A stretch of 29,741 nucleotides of DNA from a virus. Positions 1-23,599 of this stretch are shown here, piece by piece. A program made the position numbers and the translations under genes. The stretch spans positions 1 to 29,741 of IMG/VR virus record IMGVR_UViG_3300033154_000337, one strand, 5' to 3'. The notes under the pieces were generated by a model that searched no databases, was not told the DNA's origin, and was given only the letters and a program-made list of their open reading frames with translations. Every line of letters starts with the position of its first letter. Position 1 is the stretch's first letter.

Positions 1-423
1 CATACCTCGTCGCGGGTACGCACGTGACTCTTTCCATTGCCCCACCATCCGATGAACGTAATCCCAGCTTTCATCGTCAACGTGCAGGAACTCTTCGTAC
101 CCAGGTAGCGAACCATCACCTCTGATCCTCGTGTAGAGAGGCATGAGGCTGTCCCCGGCTTGGAGGTACTGTGCCTCGTTGTACTTGCCGTCCCGAAGCA
201 TGAAGAGGTGATCCGGAGTACAGACTACGTCGCGACCGTTGTCAAGCGTCACACGGAGTACGCGTGCCACCTCTCGCGTCTTGCGAGCCGACGTTGCCTT
301 CCCCACGCTGACACGCCCATGTCGAATCGTGTAGACGTAGAACGGTCCGTCACGCTGCGATAGCTCCTTCAGTGTTGGAGACGAACCATCAAGTAGTCGT
401 ACCCGTGTGTCCCCAACAAAACA
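1..423 (-). other. Intein N-terminal part in terminase (Hint domain, probable start of an endonuclease)
   Basis: In-frame self-splicing protein element. Codon 646 of the terminase (421-423) is the splice-donor Cys. The next residues, CFVGDTRVRLLDG, match intein block A. About 65 residues on, VVCTPDHLFML carries the TxxH of block B, followed by LQAGDSL. After the splicing half, the sequence ESWDYVHRMVGQW resembles the entry into an HNH homing endonuclease, but the catalytic part, the C-terminal blocks F and G and the +1 residue lie outside the window. The upstream extein ends SKDV, the third acidic motif of the terminase nuclease. The intein call is confident; the endonuclease class is inferred. 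Confidence 0.88.
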
Positions 424-2358
424 CACGTCCTTACTCTTACCAGGCTCATGGTCGACCTTGCGCTTCTCGACATCGTGACGAAGCGCTATGACCTCGTCGA
501 TGAACGGCGGGTACGCGTACATGTTGAGCGCGTTGTATGTCATGGTGTCGCGCAGCATCATGTACGGGCGGTCGTCCCGGTCCACTGACAGAATACCTGC
601 ACCCCTGAAGCCACCGATGTCCGCGAGCGGGTCTTTCCGGTTCGCCTGCCGGCGGGAGTCACGAGGTACCTGCGCGGCCTTCTGCAGAATCTGCGCCGCC
701 ATCGCGCTTTCCCACCCGTCGAACGTCACCTTGATGAGAGGGATACCGAAGTTGCGCAAGTTGAGGATGAAGGCGACAATCTTCGTCAAGTCGATCTGCG
801 TACCAAACGTCGGCACGATACGCAACATGAAGTCCATCCATATCTTCGGACGGAACTCCTCGACCACCATACCTGTGATCGGGTCGTGCTTCGTGTACGT
901 GTAGTAGTCAAAGCGGTGCCCCATCGCCATGCCCGCCGAGTCGCCGGTGAGCCCGAGGTCAACATGAATGACACGCGGCTCCGCGGCCCGCAGCTTCATG
1001 CGGTATGCACTCTTGTCGATGTAGACGAGCGCGGTCCAGTTGATGAGCTGCAAGAGGTCAGCCGCAGGATCGTTGAGCGGCAGCGTCGCCTGCTCAACGG
1101 AGAAAGGATGACGGCGAGTCTTGTCGATGCACGCGTAGACGCTTTCAGGACGATGGATCAGCGGCGACTCGCCGAAGGTCGGAATGCCGGCGACGTCGCG
1201 CAGCGCGCCCTCAATATCGCGATGGAAGTCGCTGTAGAAGTCCATCGGCACCTCGACAACAGGCTGATTCTCTGCCGGCTCCAAGGTCTCGATTAGCTTG
1301 CCACTCTTGAGGTCATGGCGGTCGAGCAGCTTACTGCTACGGTACCGGTTGCCCACCGCCACGCGGAAGCTCTTTGGTGAGTAGTTGTCGCGCCCCTTCG
1401 TGTCCCACAGCGAGTAGTCGCTGACGTGAAGCTCAGGGCTGCCCTTCATCGAGCGCAGGTGTTCCTCAAGGAAGCTCGACTGCGTGCGCCGCGAGCTGAC
1501 AAGGCATGCAAGCCCAGGACACCAGCCATGCTGCGCGAAGCGGCTCTTGATGCGGCGGCTGGTGTGGTTGTAGAGCTGGTATGCCTGATCTCGCTCCTTC
1601 GCGTCCTCACCCTTCGGCAGGTTGCGGAGCTTGCGCATGAAGTTCATCTCGTCGATGAGCACGGAGAACAGGTTAGAACCCAGCGCGTGAATCTCGGTCG
1701 ACCCCTCCTGCACGAAGAGGTTCGACTGCGGCCACTCAATGCGCGTGTCCTTCGTCTTCTTGCGCGGGAAGCTTTCCTTGAAGTAGGGTGACGCGTCGAA
1801 GAACCTCCGCATCTGGATGAAGTCGATGCTCGCCGCGTTGCGCAGCGTGACGTTGAAGCAGCCGAAGGCGATCTCAGTACCGCTCGCGAGTCCGTAGTAT
1901 ACCTGCGGCTCCCGAAGGCACGACAGCATGTACAGCTTGTAGGCAGTCGCGACAAGCGCGGAGTAGGTCTTCCCCGCGCCGATGGCACCCGTCAGCACCC
2001 ACTCGGCGACAGGCGAGCCGTACCCGCAGACGTAGATGATGTCCGTCTTCCACGCGGGGTAGAGCGTTCTGCCGACGTGCCCAAAGTAGTAGTCGTCTTC
2101 GAGGAACTGCTTGATATCCACGGGCCGGACGCGGTAGTCCAGCTCCCATAGAGCGTCAAGCGTAGCGGAGTTGCCTTTATCCCGAAGCTCGATCAGGACG
2201 TCTACGAGAACGCCCTGCTCTTCGGAGCTGAGGTGCTTGACGTTCTCGAACCACGAACGGACGGTGCGCTTGTCCTGGTTGTCCGCGGCTTCGACGATGC
2301 GGTCAAGAAGTCGGCTCAGATCCTCACGCAGCTTCGGCGTCGACCTCTCGATCGTCAT
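1..2358 (-). CDS. terL: Terminase large subunit interrupted by an intein (3' part beyond window)
   Basis: DNA-packaging motor ATPase-nuclease, which pumps DNA into the prohead and cuts the concatemer. The first 645 codons are extein. Walker A is GAIGAGKT at residues 124-131, and Walker B is VLIDEMN at about 233-239 with D236 and E237. A C-terminal RNase H-like nuclease has acidic motifs at D467 (VIHVDLG), D547 (VTFDGWES) and D644 (KVDHEPGKSKDV). Directly after V645 the frame enters an intein at Cys646, so the nuclease domain is completed only beyond the left edge. The start is ATG at 2358, since an in-frame TGA lies three codons upstream. It overlaps the preceding gene by 35 bp and has GGAGG sequences nearby. 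The frame is fully open through all 786 codons in the window. The family call is secure from motif order; the missing extein end cannot be judged. Confidence 0.93.
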   Translation of the reverse strand, partial: MTIERSTPKLREDLSRLLDRIVEAADNQDKRTVRSWFENVKHLSSEEQGVLVDVLIELRDKGNSATLDALWELDYRVRPVDIKQFLEDDYYFGHVGRTLYPAWKTDIIYVCGYGSPVAEWVLTGAIGAGKTYSALVATAYKLYMLSCLREPQVYYGLASGTEIAFGCFNVTLRNAASIDFIQMRRFFDASPYFKESFPRKKTKDTRIEWPQSNLFVQEGSTEIHALGSNLFSVLIDEMNFMRKLRNLPKGEDAKERDQAYQLYNHTSRRIKSRFAQHGWCPGLACLVSSRRTQSSFLEEHLRSMKGSPELHVSDYSLWDTKGRDNYSPKSFRVAVGNRYRSSKLLDRHDLKSGKLIETLEPAENQPVVEVPMDFYSDFHRDIEGALRDVAGIPTFGESPLIHRPESVYACIDKTRRHPFSVEQATLPLNDPAADLLQLINWTALVYIDKSAYRMKLRAAEPRVIHVDLGLTGDSAGMAMGHRFDYYTYTKHDPITGMVVEEFRPKIWMDFMLRIVPTFGTQIDLTKIVAFILNLRNFGIPLIKVTFDGWESAMAAQILQKAAQVPRDSRRQANRKDPLADIGGFRGAGILSVDRDDRPYMMLRDTMTYNALNMYAYPPFIDEVIALRHDVEKRKVDHEPGKSKDVCFVGDTRVRLLDGSSPTLKELSQRDGPFYVYTIRHGRVSVGKATSARKTREVARVLRVTLDNGRDVVCTPDHLFMLRDGKYNEAQYLQAGDSLMPLYTRIRGDGSLPGYEEFLHVDDESWDYVHRMVGQWKESRAYPRRGM

Positions 2359-18400: not shown

Positions 18401-21400
18401 TCAGATTTTCACGATAGAGCCGCTGCCGTCCACTAACCGCTTCTTCTCAATCGTGCAGTAAACTCGATCACGCTTGACCCGGACCGTGCGCACGAGCTTC
18501 CCCGGCTCGTGCGCATGTTCCTTCTCCCCGATGACCTTGAGCCCACGCCACTCGTCACACACGAGGTCAAGCTTCCCCGGCGAGCCAGTGAGGTTGAGGT
18601 GTTCCTTATCGAACACGTACGTCTCCCGGTCCTCCCAGAGGAAGCTCGCTTCGACCATCGTGCCCCAAGTCGTCCCGAGGTCAAACTCCGCTTCGGGCCG
18701 GCACATGACCCAATCCCACAACTCGTAGGGGGCAAGCGCCATCTGATAGTAGATCAGCTCCATGAGGTCAAAGGTGCAGTCGAGCGTATCCCAATACTGC
18801 GCGTCGTGAATGGTAAGCCACGGAATGCCGTTCGGGATCCCCAGCGCCTTCGCCGTCTTCCAGCACCTTCCGATCGCCGACAGCGTCATGTCGCTCGCGG
18901 CCGACTGAATCGGGGTGTTGACCGCACGCCGCTTTGCGCCCGCGACCTCATACTGCTTCTTGCTCTGCGCCGTCGGGATGTAACGAAGCCGATTGAAGAG
19001 AGTGTCGATGTAGCCGTTCTCCTCAGCGAACGCGTGGTAGCGGTCGATGAGCAGCTTGACCTCGGGAATCTGATCGAAGAACACCTTAACCAGTGCTTCT
19101 GCTTCTTCCTTCGCTATCTGCAGCTTCGTCGCGAGCGCGTTGACACCCTGACCGTAGAGGATGCCGAAGGTGATGCTCTTCGTCGGCGTGCGCTGCGCCT
19201 TCGTGACCTCCTCATAGGCGCAGCGGTACACGCGCGACGCCATGACCTTGTGGATGTCGAGACCCTTGTCAATCGCAACAGCTATGTCTCGCGCGACAGC
19301 GAGCATAACCATAACCCTCACCTCGATTTGTGAGTTGCCACTGACGAGCCCGTTCCCAAGCACATAGTTGTGTGTACCCTCAACGGTAATCTGATAAACC
19401 GGTGCCACACCGACAGGTTTGATCGACCTGACGCGATGGTTCCCGCTCCCACGCTTACGCGCAGCGCTACGTCGTTCCGGCGTGTAGCACGACTTAGAGC
19501 AAAACTTCTTACGCGCGGACGGCGCGGCATGGAAGGTCACACCGCACGTCGGGCACACCGCCTCCACCTTCTTCGTCTTTCCGAAGTTCGGATTCCCGGA
19601 ACCTGTGTAGGACCGACGCTTCGCCTGCCCCGCCACAAGCTTGCGAGATCGTTCCTTGCGCTCCTCATCGGATGCTTCGGTCCACCAACGCTTACCGCCC
19701 TGCCCTCTGTTCTCCACCCGAGAAATGACACGTAGGTTCTCGCGCGTGTTATTGTCGATGTCCCCATCTATGTGATCGACTTCAAGCTCACGTCTGTGTC
19801 GCCCTTCGCGAGAACTCGGAAAGAGGAAGTCCGCAAGGGCGTGGTGCTGGTAAGCGTAATCACGGTTGCTCCGCATATACCACGTCGGATAGTGCCCCGA
19901 GAGCCCTGAACGTACGTGCGCAAGCCGGTCACCCGGACGTAGCTCCGAGGTCTTTGCCATCGACCCGTCGAACCGCATCCACTTGTGGTCTTCCGTACAC
20001 CGGACGACGCTTCCGTCTTCCAACATCATCTCAACGATGGGAAGCGTCCCCACCAAAGCACCCCGAGTCGTACGTTGGAACTCGACCGTGCGACCGTCGG
20101 GAGACGAGAGCACAGGAGGCAGCTTCTCTACGACCTCCTCGATGGGCATCACACCATCCGCGGTAACGACCGGCGTACCAGCTACGAGACAGTAGTCTGC
20201 GCCGAGCAGGAGGCCACCGCGACCACACCACCGAGAGATGTAGATCCTCGTGACGTCCGTCTCTTTGTCAGCCTTACGCTTCGGCCAGTTCTGCCCGTTC
20301 GGGTTCGCGCTGGACAGCCGGCCGCTCACCGTGCCGTGCATCTTCAGCTCGGAGTGCAGGCAATAGGCGAGGGGCTGGTCCGCGAAGGGGCGGTAGATGG
20401 GAAGCATGCGGCTGCGCACGTCCGCGGGGTTCTTGTCGTCGACCGGGTAGTCGGCCGTGAGCTTCGGTACGCCGCGCACGTACGTGCTGTTCGTCTTCGT
20501 CAGCGACGCGAGCTGGTTCGTCAGGGCAAACAGCTCAGACGCAGAGGAGTACACCGTAGCGTTGTGCGTGTGCATCTGAATGGCCGCGCGCTGGTCGTTC
20601 TTCCCCTCGACCTCCGCCAGCGCCTCCCGCGCCATTCTCGCCATACGTGCAAAAGCCGACGTGAAGATGGCCCGATTGTGCTCGGACCGCTTCGGTGTGT
20701 CGCCCCTCTCGCGGGTCTCCAAGTCGTTGAAGAAGTGCTTGTGATCCATGATGCCGAGCCCATGCAGCACGAGAGCATCATACGCCTTGTCACTACTCGG
20801 GTTCCACCAGCGGGTATGCTTCGTCTCGCCCGTCTTCTTGTCGGTCTCCACCTCGTGGTACCACGTCGAGGCGTCGTAAAGCGTCCGCGGCTTCTTGCGC
20901 TTGTTACCGGACTCCTTCAGCTCGTAGTTGTACTCCTCAGCCCGCATGTTGTGCTGCTTGCTGCTGTGCTCAATCCAGTTGAGCACGTGCGGATTCGCAT
21001 TGAGCTTCTGCCGTACGGTAGTGATACGCTCGGGGAAGCGCTCGTTCAGCTTGCCCCACTCGACGGGATCGTAGAGCATGCCGTGGTACATCATGTCTAC
21101 GATAGCCTGCCATGACTCATGCTGGCCGAAGTAGAGCCTGTAGTAGTCGTCGTAGCGCTCCTCGTCGCGAAGCTGCTCAACCTGCTCTTTGTAGACCAGC
21201 CGCGTCACGTCCGTGTCGCCGCAGTTCGCTACAACGCCAACATGCGTTACGAAGTTACCAGCCTCCGGAACTGTCAGGCAGAAGCGTACACCCCATCCAC
21301 GCGCCGCAAGTACATCCGGGTGTGCCGGTTCAACGCGCTCTAACAGCTCGTAGAACAACGGGCCTGCCTCTGGAGAAATAACCTCGCTTCCGACTATCGT

Positions 21401-23599
21401 CAACGGGCTCTTGTACGCCATCGACGGATGCACAAACGGAGCTATTACTTTGTGAAACTCTTGAAAAGCGCCACCGCGAATTCTGACGAACCCCTGCCTC
21501 TCGTTGTACGCGACCTCCGAACCGAACAACCGCTGAAGCCAGGAGACAAGTAGCTGCGCTTCTTCGTCAGGCAGCTTCGCATAGATTCTGGAAGCGTCTC
21601 GGTTCTTCACGAGTGTGCCGTCGTCCTGATACCACACCGCAAGCCCGAGAACACCAAGTAGGGATAGGACGTTGCCCGTGATCTTCGTCTTGCAGTGACC
21701 GTGATCCTCCCGCTTGCGTTTTGGGAACAATCGCAAGAGGGACGCGAGGTACCGAGAGTAGGGAAGAGCGTAGCGAACAAATTTGTCGGGTGCTTGTATG
21801 TGCTTAGGAGAGAACGGGGCAAACACCGCCGCCTTCCACTCCGCATAACCAACGCAGCTGCTACGCTGACCGAAGCGCAGCCCAACAGACTTACCGTTAC
21901 GGCCCCCCAGTCCGCCATCCCCGAGAACCGTACCGAGAAAGACCGACATCTGATCCGAAGAGAACGTGTTCTCGTCTGTGAGAATGGAATCAACGCCAGC
22001 TTGCAACTCATCCACACGAACACGACCACGGTCCGTGTATATCTCGTGTTCTGGTGTAAACAGCGGGCCGGACCCGTCCGGCGTCGTCGAGGTGACAAGC
22101 CTGTACCACTCGCGTTGACGAACGTCAGCACGATGCCACCCCGTCACGGTCGCATCTACCACACAACCATCCACAACAGCCTTCACGGTCCCGTCATAGC
22201 GATCTTGCACGAGAGCACGAATCTGCCTCCACGAGCCGTCTCCGAGCTGTACAAGACTGTTACCACTAAGGCATCCGTAGCGCGTCTCTATGTCGCGTGG
22301 TGCGTCCTCGAACGTCTTCCCGGGGTTCGTGAGACGCCAGGCCCGCATCTCCACCTTGTGGTTCGGCGCGCCAAGGTAGCGCCGACCGATCGCCGGCAGG
22401 TTCCGCATGACGTCCTGACCCATCGTCAGCCAGTGATCCGCGAGCAACGTGTCGCCGACGACCTTGTAGTCTTTGATGCCCAGCTTGCAGCGGAGGAACT
22501 TGTAGTCGAACTCGTAGTTGTGGCCGACGACCGGCACCGCATGCAGCAGCCGAGAGAAGACCGCGATGAACTTGCGGAGCATGAAGGGCGTGTTGAAGAC
22601 GCTATCGACGTGGTTCACGAGGATGAGCACACCCTCGTGGTCCTCGCGCGACACCTGCACCGTGAAAATGCGTGTGCGCGGGTGGAAGGGGCTCATCCAG
22701 ATGTACTTCTCGCCCAGCTCCTCTGAACCCTCGACGTCGACCGCGATGAAGTCGCACGTGCCGGAACGGTGCATCTCGATGGTCTCATCAGCGTAGCGTT
22801 CGAGAGCGTCGAAATCGTTGATGACGCTGTACTTCTTCTCGACGCTCGCAAGCTTGCCGATCGTCGTTGCAGAGAGGAGATCAGAACGGAAGAGGCTGTG
22901 CGTCTTCGTGCCCTTTCCCTCACGCAGGACGTAGCTCGGGTGAAAGACCGGGACGACCGTCGTCTTATCCTCAAGGAACGGGCGGTAGCCGTGCTCTTGC
23001 GCGCCGTCCATCTGCAGCTGCGCAACCGTCCCGTCTGCGGCCTTGAAGCGGTAGCGCCAGAATCCGTCCAGCGCATCCGGCGCGTTGTCGCCCGCCCATT
23101 TGTGGTAGTCGAGGTAGCGCAGCGACCGGGGGAGGCGCTGGTAGAAGTCGCCGAGACGGTAGACGTTGCCCCGCTCCGCGGTGATCTTCTTCAGGCCCGT
23201 GAAGGCTTCGAGAGCCGCGTTGCCGGCGAGTATGATGACCGGAGGGGAGTGCTTTTCTATGAGTCGCAGCGTGTGCGGAAGGCAGGCGCTCGTCTCCTCA
23301 GGTGTCGGCTTGCGGAACTTCGTCGCCATGCCGTCCTTGTGCGGCATACACCACGTCGCGTTCGCGAAGATGCAGTCGTTGATGTCGATCTTCGCTTCGA
23401 CAAGCGTTTCGCGCAGCATCCCTCCCGCGTCGCCGACGAAGGGGATACCGCGCTGCACCTCCGTCGGTCCGGGCGCCTCCCCAAGCACGAGGTAACGCGG
23501 CTCATGCTCCGGCGCGTGCATCTTCGGTAGAACGGGAGCACATCCCTGCGCCGCGTTCAGCGGGCACTTCTCGCACAACGGACTCAGCTGCACGCGCAT
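18401..23599 (-). CDS. polA: Family A DNA polymerase with UDG-like domain, 3'-5' exonuclease and two inteins
   Basis: A 1732-residue precursor; splicing out residues 443-792 and 1137-1422 leaves about 1096. The N-terminus (1-240) resembles family 4 uracil-DNA glycosylase, with C9, C12, C84 and C106 as possible Fe-S ligands, GEAPGPTEVQRGIPFVGDAGG, and VFHPSYVLR. The exonuclease has D288/E290, N361/D365 and Y441..D795 after splicing. Polymerase motif A is GADY-SQIEVRV (D1135), motif B is KSITFGILYG (K1474, F1478, Y1482), and motif C is IHDA (D1599), where the usual Glu is Ala. Polymerases of this layout are known in SPO1-like phages. It is the replicative polymerase, with the 5' nuclease encoded separately. 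It overlaps the upstream gene by 16 bp; ATG 23599 is used, though GTG 23593 has better Shine-Dalgarno spacing. Confidence 0.95.
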   Translation of the reverse strand: MRVQLSPLCEKCPLNAAQGCAPVLPKMHAPEHEPRYLVLGEAPGPTEVQRGIPFVGDAGGMLRETLVEAKIDINDCIFANATWCMPHKDGMATKFRKPTPEETSACLPHTLRLIEKHSPPVIILAGNAALEAFTGLKKITAERGNVYRLGDFYQRLPRSLRYLDYHKWAGDNAPDALDGFWRYRFKAADGTVAQLQMDGAQEHGYRPFLEDKTTVVPVFHPSYVLREGKGTKTHSLFRSDLLSATTIGKLASVEKKYSVINDFDALERYADETIEMHRSGTCDFIAVDVEGSEELGEKYIWMSPFHPRTRIFTVQVSREDHEGVLILVNHVDSVFNTPFMLRKFIAVFSRLLHAVPVVGHNYEFDYKFLRCKLGIKDYKVVGDTLLADHWLTMGQDVMRNLPAIGRRYLGAPNHKVEMRAWRLTNPGKTFEDAPRDIETRYGCLSGNSLVQLGDGSWRQIRALVQDRYDGTVKAVVDGCVVDATVTGWHRADVRQREWYRLVTSTTPDGSGPLFTPEHEIYTDRGRVRVDELQAGVDSILTDENTFSSDQMSVFLGTVLGDGGLGGRNGKSVGLRFGQRSSCVGYAEWKAAVFAPFSPKHIQAPDKFVRYALPYSRYLASLLRLFPKRKREDHGHCKTKITGNVLSLLGVLGLAVWYQDDGTLVKNRDASRIYAKLPDEEAQLLVSWLQRLFGSEVAYNERQGFVRIRGGAFQEFHKVIAPFVHPSMAYKSPLTIVGSEVISPEAGPLFYELLERVEPAHPDVLAARGWGVRFCLTVPEAGNFVTHVGVVANCGDTDVTRLVYKEQVEQLRDEERYDDYYRLYFGQHESWQAIVDMMYHGMLYDPVEWGKLNERFPERITTVRQKLNANPHVLNWIEHSSKQHNMRAEEYNYELKESGNKRKKPRTLYDASTWYHEVETDKKTGETKHTRWWNPSSDKAYDALVLHGLGIMDHKHFFNDLETRERGDTPKRSEHNRAIFTSAFARMARMAREALAEVEGKNDQRAAIQMHTHNATVYSSASELFALTNQLASLTKTNSTYVRGVPKLTADYPVDDKNPADVRSRMLPIYRPFADQPLAYCLHSELKMHGTVSGRLSSANPNGQNWPKRKADKETDVTRIYISRWCGRGGLLLGADYCLVAGTPVVTADGVMPIEEVVEKLPPVLSSPDGRTVEFQRTTRGALVGTLPIVEMMLEDGSVVRCTEDHKWMRFDGSMAKTSELRPGDRLAHVRSGLSGHYPTWYMRSNRDYAYQHHALADFLFPSSREGRHRRELEVDHIDGDIDNNTRENLRVISRVENRGQGGKRWWTEASDEERKERSRKLVAGQAKRRSYTGSGNPNFGKTKKVEAVCPTCGVTFHAAPSARKKFCSKSCYTPERRSAARKRGSGNHRVRSIKPVGVAPVYQITVEGTHNYVLGNGLVSGNSQIEVRVMVMLAVARDIAVAIDKGLDIHKVMASRVYRCAYEEVTKAQRTPTKSITFGILYGQGVNALATKLQIAKEEAEALVKVFFDQIPEVKLLIDRYHAFAEENGYIDTLFNRLRYIPTAQSKKQYEVAGAKRRAVNTPIQSAASDMTLSAIGRCWKTAKALGIPNGIPWLTIHDAQYWDTLDCTFDLMELIYYQMALAPYELWDWVMCRPEAEFDLGTTWGTMVEASFLWEDRETYVFDKEHLNLTGSPGKLDLVCDEWRGLKVIGEKEHAHEPGKLVRTVRVKRDRVYCTIEKKRLVDGSGSIVKI
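19334..20191 (-). other. Intein 2 in polymerase motif A (HNH-type, 286 aa)
   Basis: In-frame intein with splice-donor Cys1137 (CLVAGTPVVTADG), block B VVRCTEDHKWMRF with a TxxH, and a C-terminal end YQITVEGTHNYVLGNGLVSGN, followed by Ser1423 as the +1 nucleophile. The endonuclease region has an HNH signature VDHIDGDIDNNTRENL around residues 1274-1289, and a four-cysteine finger (C1349, C1352, C1367, C1371) beyond it. It is inserted in GADY|SQIEVRV, two residues after catalytic D1135. The penultimate residue is Gly rather than His. Removing it restores an uninterrupted family A motif. Confidence 0.95.
21224..22273 (-). other. Intein 1 in polymerase exonuclease motif III (LAGLIDADG-type, 350 aa)
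   Basis: In-frame intein with splice-donor Cys443 (CLSGNSLVQLGDG), block B GPLFTPEHEIYTD with a TxxH, two dodecapeptide motifs of the LAGLIDADG class (FLGTVLGDGGLGG at about 554-566 and LAVWYQDDGTL at about 653-663), and an end VRFCLTVPEAGNFVTHVGVVAN followed by Cys793. It is inserted in ETRYG|CGDTDV, the YxxxD motif of the 3'-5' exonuclease, two residues before D795. The residue before the terminal Asn is Ala instead of the usual His. Confidence 0.95.

What the first reader, a model, noticed from the sequence alone, without database searches (positions are those of the whole stretch)
1..423. Terminase large subunit split by an intein at nuclease motif III
Seen: the extein ends KVDHEPGKSKDV, and the next codons begin a clear intein (CFVGDTRVRLLDG, with a block B TPDH). 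Known: terminase inteins exist, but this one falls two residues after the third acidic residue of the RNase H-like nuclease, so the packaging nuclease should be inactive until splicing. Inference: splicing could time DNA cutting and late packaging. The homing-endonuclease part lies beyond the window.
Basis: partly seen in the sequence, partly recalled or inferred. Interest (0 to 1): 0.75.

Follow-up and report, generated by a model that had tools for sequence, protein, structure and literature searches.

The report
Intein inside phage terminase nuclease site
An uncultured phage carries a complete self-splicing protein insert (an intein) in the middle of the DNA-cutting active site of its DNA-packaging enzyme; this is a new example of a known kind of selfish element, but the survey done here shows that this active site is a repeated target, hit at two points four residues apart and sometimes by inteins encoded as two separate genes.

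Summary
Two IMG/VR contigs (L002, L003) match the window exactly and run past its left end. They give the whole terminase large subunit (TerL) gene: 1128 codons, N-extein 1-645, intein 646-1031 (386 aa), C-extein from Cys1032. The joined exteins read KSKDV-CDAVAG, aligned without gap to intein-free relatives. The intein follows the residue after Asp644, the inferred third metal-binding acid (G20c D429), and separates it from a second conserved Asp.

Most likely it is a selfish HNH intein that splices out to restore the nuclease. Lack of nuclease activity before splicing is a reasonable inference; timing of packaging is speculation.

It is not unprecedented: cyanophage Mic1 has a published nuclease-domain intein at the same point. 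New here: motif III is a recurrent target with two insertion points four codons apart (A, this window; B, G^SKD, 24 distinct uninterrupted examples), plus naturally split versions. The window's intein is closer to two site-B inteins (42%) than to other site-A ones (26-31%), although an 86%-identical TerL (L004) carries a different intein (31%) at B. The intein therefore seems to have moved between phages and between neighbouring sites.

The parts
424..2358 (-). TerL N-extein, residues 1-645 (ATPase domain and most of the RNase H-like nuclease)
   Evidence: tblastn to annotated large terminases, best E 2e-71; AF2 model of intein-free relative L017 matches terminase crystal structures D6E, HK97, T4 gp17, Sf6 at E about 1e-10 to 1e-9
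1..423 (-). N-terminal 141 residues of the intein (of 386); the rest lies beyond the window, whole intein = L003:7936-9093
   Evidence: TIGR01445 starts exactly at the first intein residue, Cys646; continuation in L002/L003
208..219 (-). Intein block B, TPDH (intein residues 69-72)
   Evidence: read from sequence; shared by related inteins
424..435 (-). Nuclease motif III, S642-K643-D644-V645, directly before the intein
   Evidence: SKD invariant in 37 intein-free relatives; equivalent to G20c D429 by alignment
712..729 (-). Nuclease motif II, VTFDGW (D547)
   Evidence: invariant Asp; coordinates
940..966 (-). Nuclease motif I, HVDLGLTGD (D467, D473)
   Evidence: invariant Asps; coordinates
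1966..1989 (-). Walker A, GAIGAGKT (residues 124-131)
   Evidence: sequence; conserved; coordinates
1648..1665 (-). Walker B, SVLIDE (residues 232-237)
   Evidence: sequence; DE invariant; coordinates

Best explanation
The gene encodes a phage TerL precursor interrupted at nuclease motif III by a complete, contiguous class-1-type intein with an HNH homing-endonuclease region. The intein is predicted to excise itself (Cys1, TxxH in block B, terminal His-Asn, +1 Cys) and to join ...KSKDV to CDAVAG..., restoring motif III; before that the nuclease is probably inactive. It persists as a selfish element: its endonuclease is predicted to cut the conserved motif III DNA of intein-free TerL genes in co-infecting phages and the intein to be copied in. 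Shown: gene structure, both junctions, the empty-site match, recurrence at the same motif in other phages. Inferred: splicing, endonuclease activity, loss of nuclease function in the precursor.
For: Both junctions and the whole intein are recovered from exactly matching contigs and recognised by curated intein models. Joined exteins align without gap to intein-free TerLs at an invariant motif. AF2 precursor model matches both large terminases (E 8e-12) and solved inteins such as Npu DnaB (E 5e-6). Selfish mobility: third-position GC 0.61 in the intein against 0.82 in the N-extein; the 86%-identical TerL of L004 has an intein only 31% identical, 4 codons away; the inteins of L114 and L106 are more like the window's (42%) than their TerLs are (37-38%); 73 of 79 readable close relatives are empty at this motif.
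Against: No splicing or cleavage was measured. The HNH region is weak by profile: no Pfam HNH_3 match in P0001 at E <= 0.1, only a PHROG HNH family at E 0.0023, though the HH...N...H residues read by eye are shared with L114 and L106; the endonuclease may be degenerate. No intein-free allele of nearly identical sequence was found for this phage.
Confidence: 0.92

Rival explanations
1. Regulatory intein: splicing is conditional and times TerL nuclease activity, so that concatemer cutting starts only late in infection.
For: The site splits the active-site motif, so any splicing delay would delay nuclease activity; the same idea was proposed for Mic1 (PMC7156551). In the AF2 precursor, residues 640-644 around motif III fall below pLDDT 50, a weak hint of a disturbed site.
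Against: Most close relatives do without an intein here; inteins of different lineages sit at two nearby points; tested phage TerL inteins spliced readily (PMC5050341). No sensor or condition is suggested by the sequence.
Confidence: 0.08
2. Dead insert: the intein no longer splices and TerL of this phage is broken.
For: HNH profile match is weak.
Against: One continuous 1128-codon frame with all splicing residues intact, same sequence in two further records.
Confidence: 0.03
3. Assembly artefact: intein DNA from another gene joined to TerL.
For: Window ends inside the intein; composition differs.
Against: Two other IMG/VR records run through both junctions in frame and agree base for base; the C-extein continues the same TerL, the joined exteins being 86% identical to L004 over 735 aa.
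Confidence: 0.01

Closest known systems
Nuclease-domain intein of Microcystis phage Mic1 TerL (MN013189; PMC7156551)
   Same: Inserted at the equivalent point: Mic1 QDHL^CDALRY, window SKDV^CDAVAG, both with +1 Cys
   Different: Mic1 intein is 146 aa without endonuclease, divergent, and in a different TerL family that also has an ATPase-domain intein
Mycobacteriophage TerL inteins a-g (PMC5050341)
   Same: Inteins in phage large terminases at functional motifs; tested ones splice and two have endonuclease activity
   Different: All seven sites lie in the ATPase domain, none in the nuclease
TerL inteins of uncultivated phages L114 and L106 (IMG/VR)
   Same: HNH inteins in related TerLs at motif III; 42% identical over the full length
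   Different: Inserted four codons earlier, G^SKD (site B)
Bacillus phage SP-15 TerL intein (KT624200)
   Same: Best match to the window intein in the collection of annotated phage records, 30% identity over all 386 residues
   Different: Inserted just before Walker A, with the TerL gene further split
Natural split TerL inteins AceL-TerL and GOS-TerL (PMC11766414)
   Same: Inteins known from metagenomes and named for TerL genes
   Different: Split, with short N-fragments of 25 and 37 aa and +1 Cys; insertion point in TerL not determined here; the window's intein is contiguous

Membership tests
Class 1 intein | N-terminal Cys/Ser nucleophile at a junction recognised by an N-terminal model | tested here: met
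   Cys646; TIGR01445 above cut-off starting at 646
Class 1 intein | Block B TxxH | tested here: met
   TPDH, intein residues 69-72
Class 1 intein | C-terminal block ending His-Asn, +1 Cys/Ser/Thr | tested here: met
   GVFVHN^C; TIGR01443 above cut-off, ends at the +1 residue
Class 1 intein | Hint splicing fold | tested here: met
   AF2 precursor matches solved inteins by Foldseek, E 5e-6 and weaker
Class 1 intein | Removal restores an intact host protein | tested here: met
   Joined exteins match intein-free TerLs without gap at the junction
Class 1 intein | Protein splicing activity | not testable with these tools
   needs expression
HNH intein homing endonuclease | HNH motif | tested here: inconclusive
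   Residues HH..N..H present by alignment; PHROG 7545 E 0.0023; no Pfam HNH_3 match, whereas relative L004 scores 40 bits
HNH intein homing endonuclease | Cleavage of the empty site | not testable with these tools
   needs assay
Phage large terminase (TerL) | Walker A/B ATPase plus RNase H-like nuclease with three acidic motifs | tested here: met
   Motifs at window 1966-1989, 1648-1665, 940-966, 712-729, 424-435; fold match of L017 model to solved terminases; phage records annotated as TerL E 2e-71
Conditional (regulatory) intein | Splicing depends on a signal | not testable with these tools
   no sequence evidence for it

The most novel reading that the evidence does not exclude
TerL nuclease motif III is a homing hot spot in which related HNH inteins have moved between two insertion points 12 bp apart on either side of the catalytic Asp, and in some phages the intein has become split, so that the packaging nuclease is made from two genes and exists only after trans-splicing. 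The window's intein would be a case of such a site shift (closest relatives at site B, itself at site A).
Probability: 0.55. Interest if true: 0.6.

Novelty: new member of a known kind. Interest (0 to 1): 0.45.

Why it matters
It extends phage TerL inteins, best known from the ATPase domain, to the nuclease active site as a repeated target in uncultured phages. Two adjacent insertion points in closely related hosts give a natural test of how a homing endonuclease and its intein change site. The split forms imply that some phages make their packaging nuclease by joining two proteins, and they are candidate new split inteins for protein engineering.

Tried and rejected
Sequence search of the PDB with the TerL N-extein and with a 37-sequence profile found no terminase; fold comparison was needed. 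A scan of one genome per species for 84,980 bacterial and archaeal species with one site-B junction pattern gave four hits, none of them a motif III intein. Annotated phage records: inteins related to the window's were found in TerL (ATPase site), DNA polymerase, ribonucleotide reductase and dCTP deaminase genes, but among the records examined only Mic1 had one at motif III. L116/L121 (IDHLSSEGVHNSKDV) looked like junction hits but have no intein. L156-L158 junction hits belong to another, non-TerL protein. The place of insertion of AceL-TerL and GOS-TerL could not be settled from held papers. The paper on fractured genes with split inteins (10.1093/nar/gkp095) is not held. Frequency of occupation could not be taken from the junction-pattern scans, which select for it, so a scan using only ATPase-domain patterns was made.

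Full report
What is there. The window is a fragment of a virus record. Its first 2358 bases, read on the minus strand, are one open frame: a TerL N-extein of 645 residues (424-2358) and 141 residues of an intein (1-423). Two other IMG/VR records, L003 (47.9 kb contig) and L002 (27 kb contig), match the window exactly where the loci held overlap it (8,358 bases each) and extend it 6 kb leftwards; they are identical to each other over 14,358 bases. The full gene has 1128 codons (P0001). The intein is residues 646-1031, 386 aa, ending GVFVHN; the next residue is Cys, followed by DAVAGVVYSLSTL. Curated models of intein N- and C-termini pass their cut-offs and stop at exactly these residues, and PF14890 scores 58 bits.

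Is it a terminase, and is this motif III? The extein matches annotated large terminases (E 2e-71 to Maribacter phage Colly_1). The AF2 model of an intein-free relative (L017; pLDDT 82) finds crystal structures of the D6E, HK97, T4 and Sf6 large terminases at E about 1e-10 to 1e-9 and, more weakly, the G20c nuclease (target TM 0.66, E 4e-3). In 37 intein-free relatives the acidic residues of motifs I and II and the string SKD..D are invariant. Some relatives read FDDVCDAVAG or SDDVADAVA at this place, which lines the Asp of SKD up with the second Asp of the H427-D428-D429 motif of G20c, where D429 binds metal A and is indispensable (PMC5389553). So D644 is very likely the third metal ligand (inference from alignment), and the intein begins two residues later, within the first turn of the helix that starts at this Asp in the L017 model (helix 655-669). 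A second invariant Asp (position +2 of the C-extein) lies on the other side of the intein. The precursor model shows both a terminase fold and an intein fold: Foldseek finds HK97 TerL (E 8e-12) and Npu DnaB intein (E 5e-6).

The same site in other phages. Junction-pattern scans of IMG/VR and reading of the hits give two insertion points. Site A, SKDx^[C/S]DA: window, L097, L100, L155, L159 (359-403 aa, HNH type), L098 (DDM^CDALAG, a different terminase; its intein looks LAGLIDADG-like by eye, not tested), and cyanophage Mic1 (QDHL^CDALRY). Site B, G^SKD, four codons earlier: 24 distinct uninterrupted examples of 138-365 aa, with or without an HNH region. At site B there are also split forms. 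In L112, L127 (= L129, L145), L131, L133 and L142 the TerL gene ends after about 90-100 intein residues, and a second short gene holds about 35-40 intein residues and the C-extein; L120 shows the same at a contig end. In L133 and L142 an HNH-like frame, by eye with AP2-like repeats, lies between the halves; others keep apparent remnants. L101, L113 and L117 show only the C-half. Other TerL active-site places are also hit: just before or within Walker A (L030, L033, SP-15, L136, L154) and next to nuclease motif II (L038, L097).

Occupation. A scan with ATPase-domain patterns only gave the 80 nearest TerL relatives; 79 reach motif III. 73 are empty there, four have an intein at site B, and two, both copies of the window's phage, at site A. 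So motif III is occupied in about 6% of distinct close relatives.

History. L004's TerL is 86% identical to the window's (735 aa), but its intein is at site B and only 31% identical: the two were most likely acquired separately. Conversely the inteins of L114 and L106 (site B) are 42% identical to the window's over full length, more than their exteins (37-38%) and more than other site-A inteins (26-31%). In a tree of splicing domains the window groups with L114 (94/85), and a single clade of HNH site-A inteins is rejected (AU p = 0.011; the sites were assigned before the tree was built, but the test followed a look at the first tree and some branches are long). Third-position GC is 0.61 in the intein and 0.82 in the N-extein. 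The simplest account is horizontal movement with an occasional shift of 12 bp between two points in the same conserved motif.

Mechanism. Shown: gene structure, junctions, restored motif, recurrence. Established for such families: class 1 splicing through Cys1, Asn cyclisation and a +1 Cys; homing by endonuclease cleavage of the empty allele. Inferred: that this intein splices, that its endonuclease is active (its HNH region is weak by profile), and that the precursor nuclease is inactive. The timing idea has no support beyond the position.

Known or new. TerL inteins are common in mycobacteriophages but all in the ATPase domain (PMC5050341); Mic1 already has a published nuclease-domain intein at the equivalent site and the same regulatory proposal (PMC7156551); crAss-like Delta-group TerLs typically carry an intein (PMC7886860). 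The window's intein is therefore a new member of a known kind. The two-point hot spot and the split motif III forms were not found in the papers held, but many relevant papers are not held, so their novelty is not established.

Noticed in passing
window 18401-23599 (-): Fused uracil-DNA-glycosylase-like domain, 3'-5' exonuclease and family A DNA polymerase with two further inteins: 21224-22273 (LAGLIDADG type, junction RYG^CGDTD, at what looks like exonuclease motif III YxxxD) and 19334-20191 (HNH type, GADY^SQIEVRV, polymerase motif A, right after the catalytic Asp-Tyr). All three inteins seen in this phage thus interrupt metal-binding carboxylate motifs.
   Followed up: partly
L112:3439-6042, L127, L131, L133, L142: TerL encoded as two genes with split intein halves at nuclease motif III, with HNH-like frames or remnants between them in several cases.
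   Followed up: partly
L033:6894-9659: Portal protein gene next to an intein-bearing TerL carries its own 378-aa HNH intein (WNPV^C...HN^SIDADLFW).
   Followed up: no
L011:1027-5187 (LR756508, 484 kb uncultured phage): Frame resembling a portal protein with what appear to be three inteins in one gene.
   Followed up: no
L097:2091-5885: TerL with two inteins in the nuclease domain, one after motif II and one at motif III.
   Followed up: partly
L164 (Streptococcus phage vB_SagM-GXN1) 234-5888: Unannotated frame in an isolated phage that looks like a glycosylase-polymerase A fusion with an HNH intein ending in His-Gln (VVHQ^S) instead of His-Asn, similar in layout to the window's polymerase.
   Followed up: no
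window 5513-28460 (-): Replication and recombination block: SbcC/SbcD-like pair, exonuclease, DNA helicases, UvsX-like recombinase, primase, DnaB-like helicase.
   Followed up: partly
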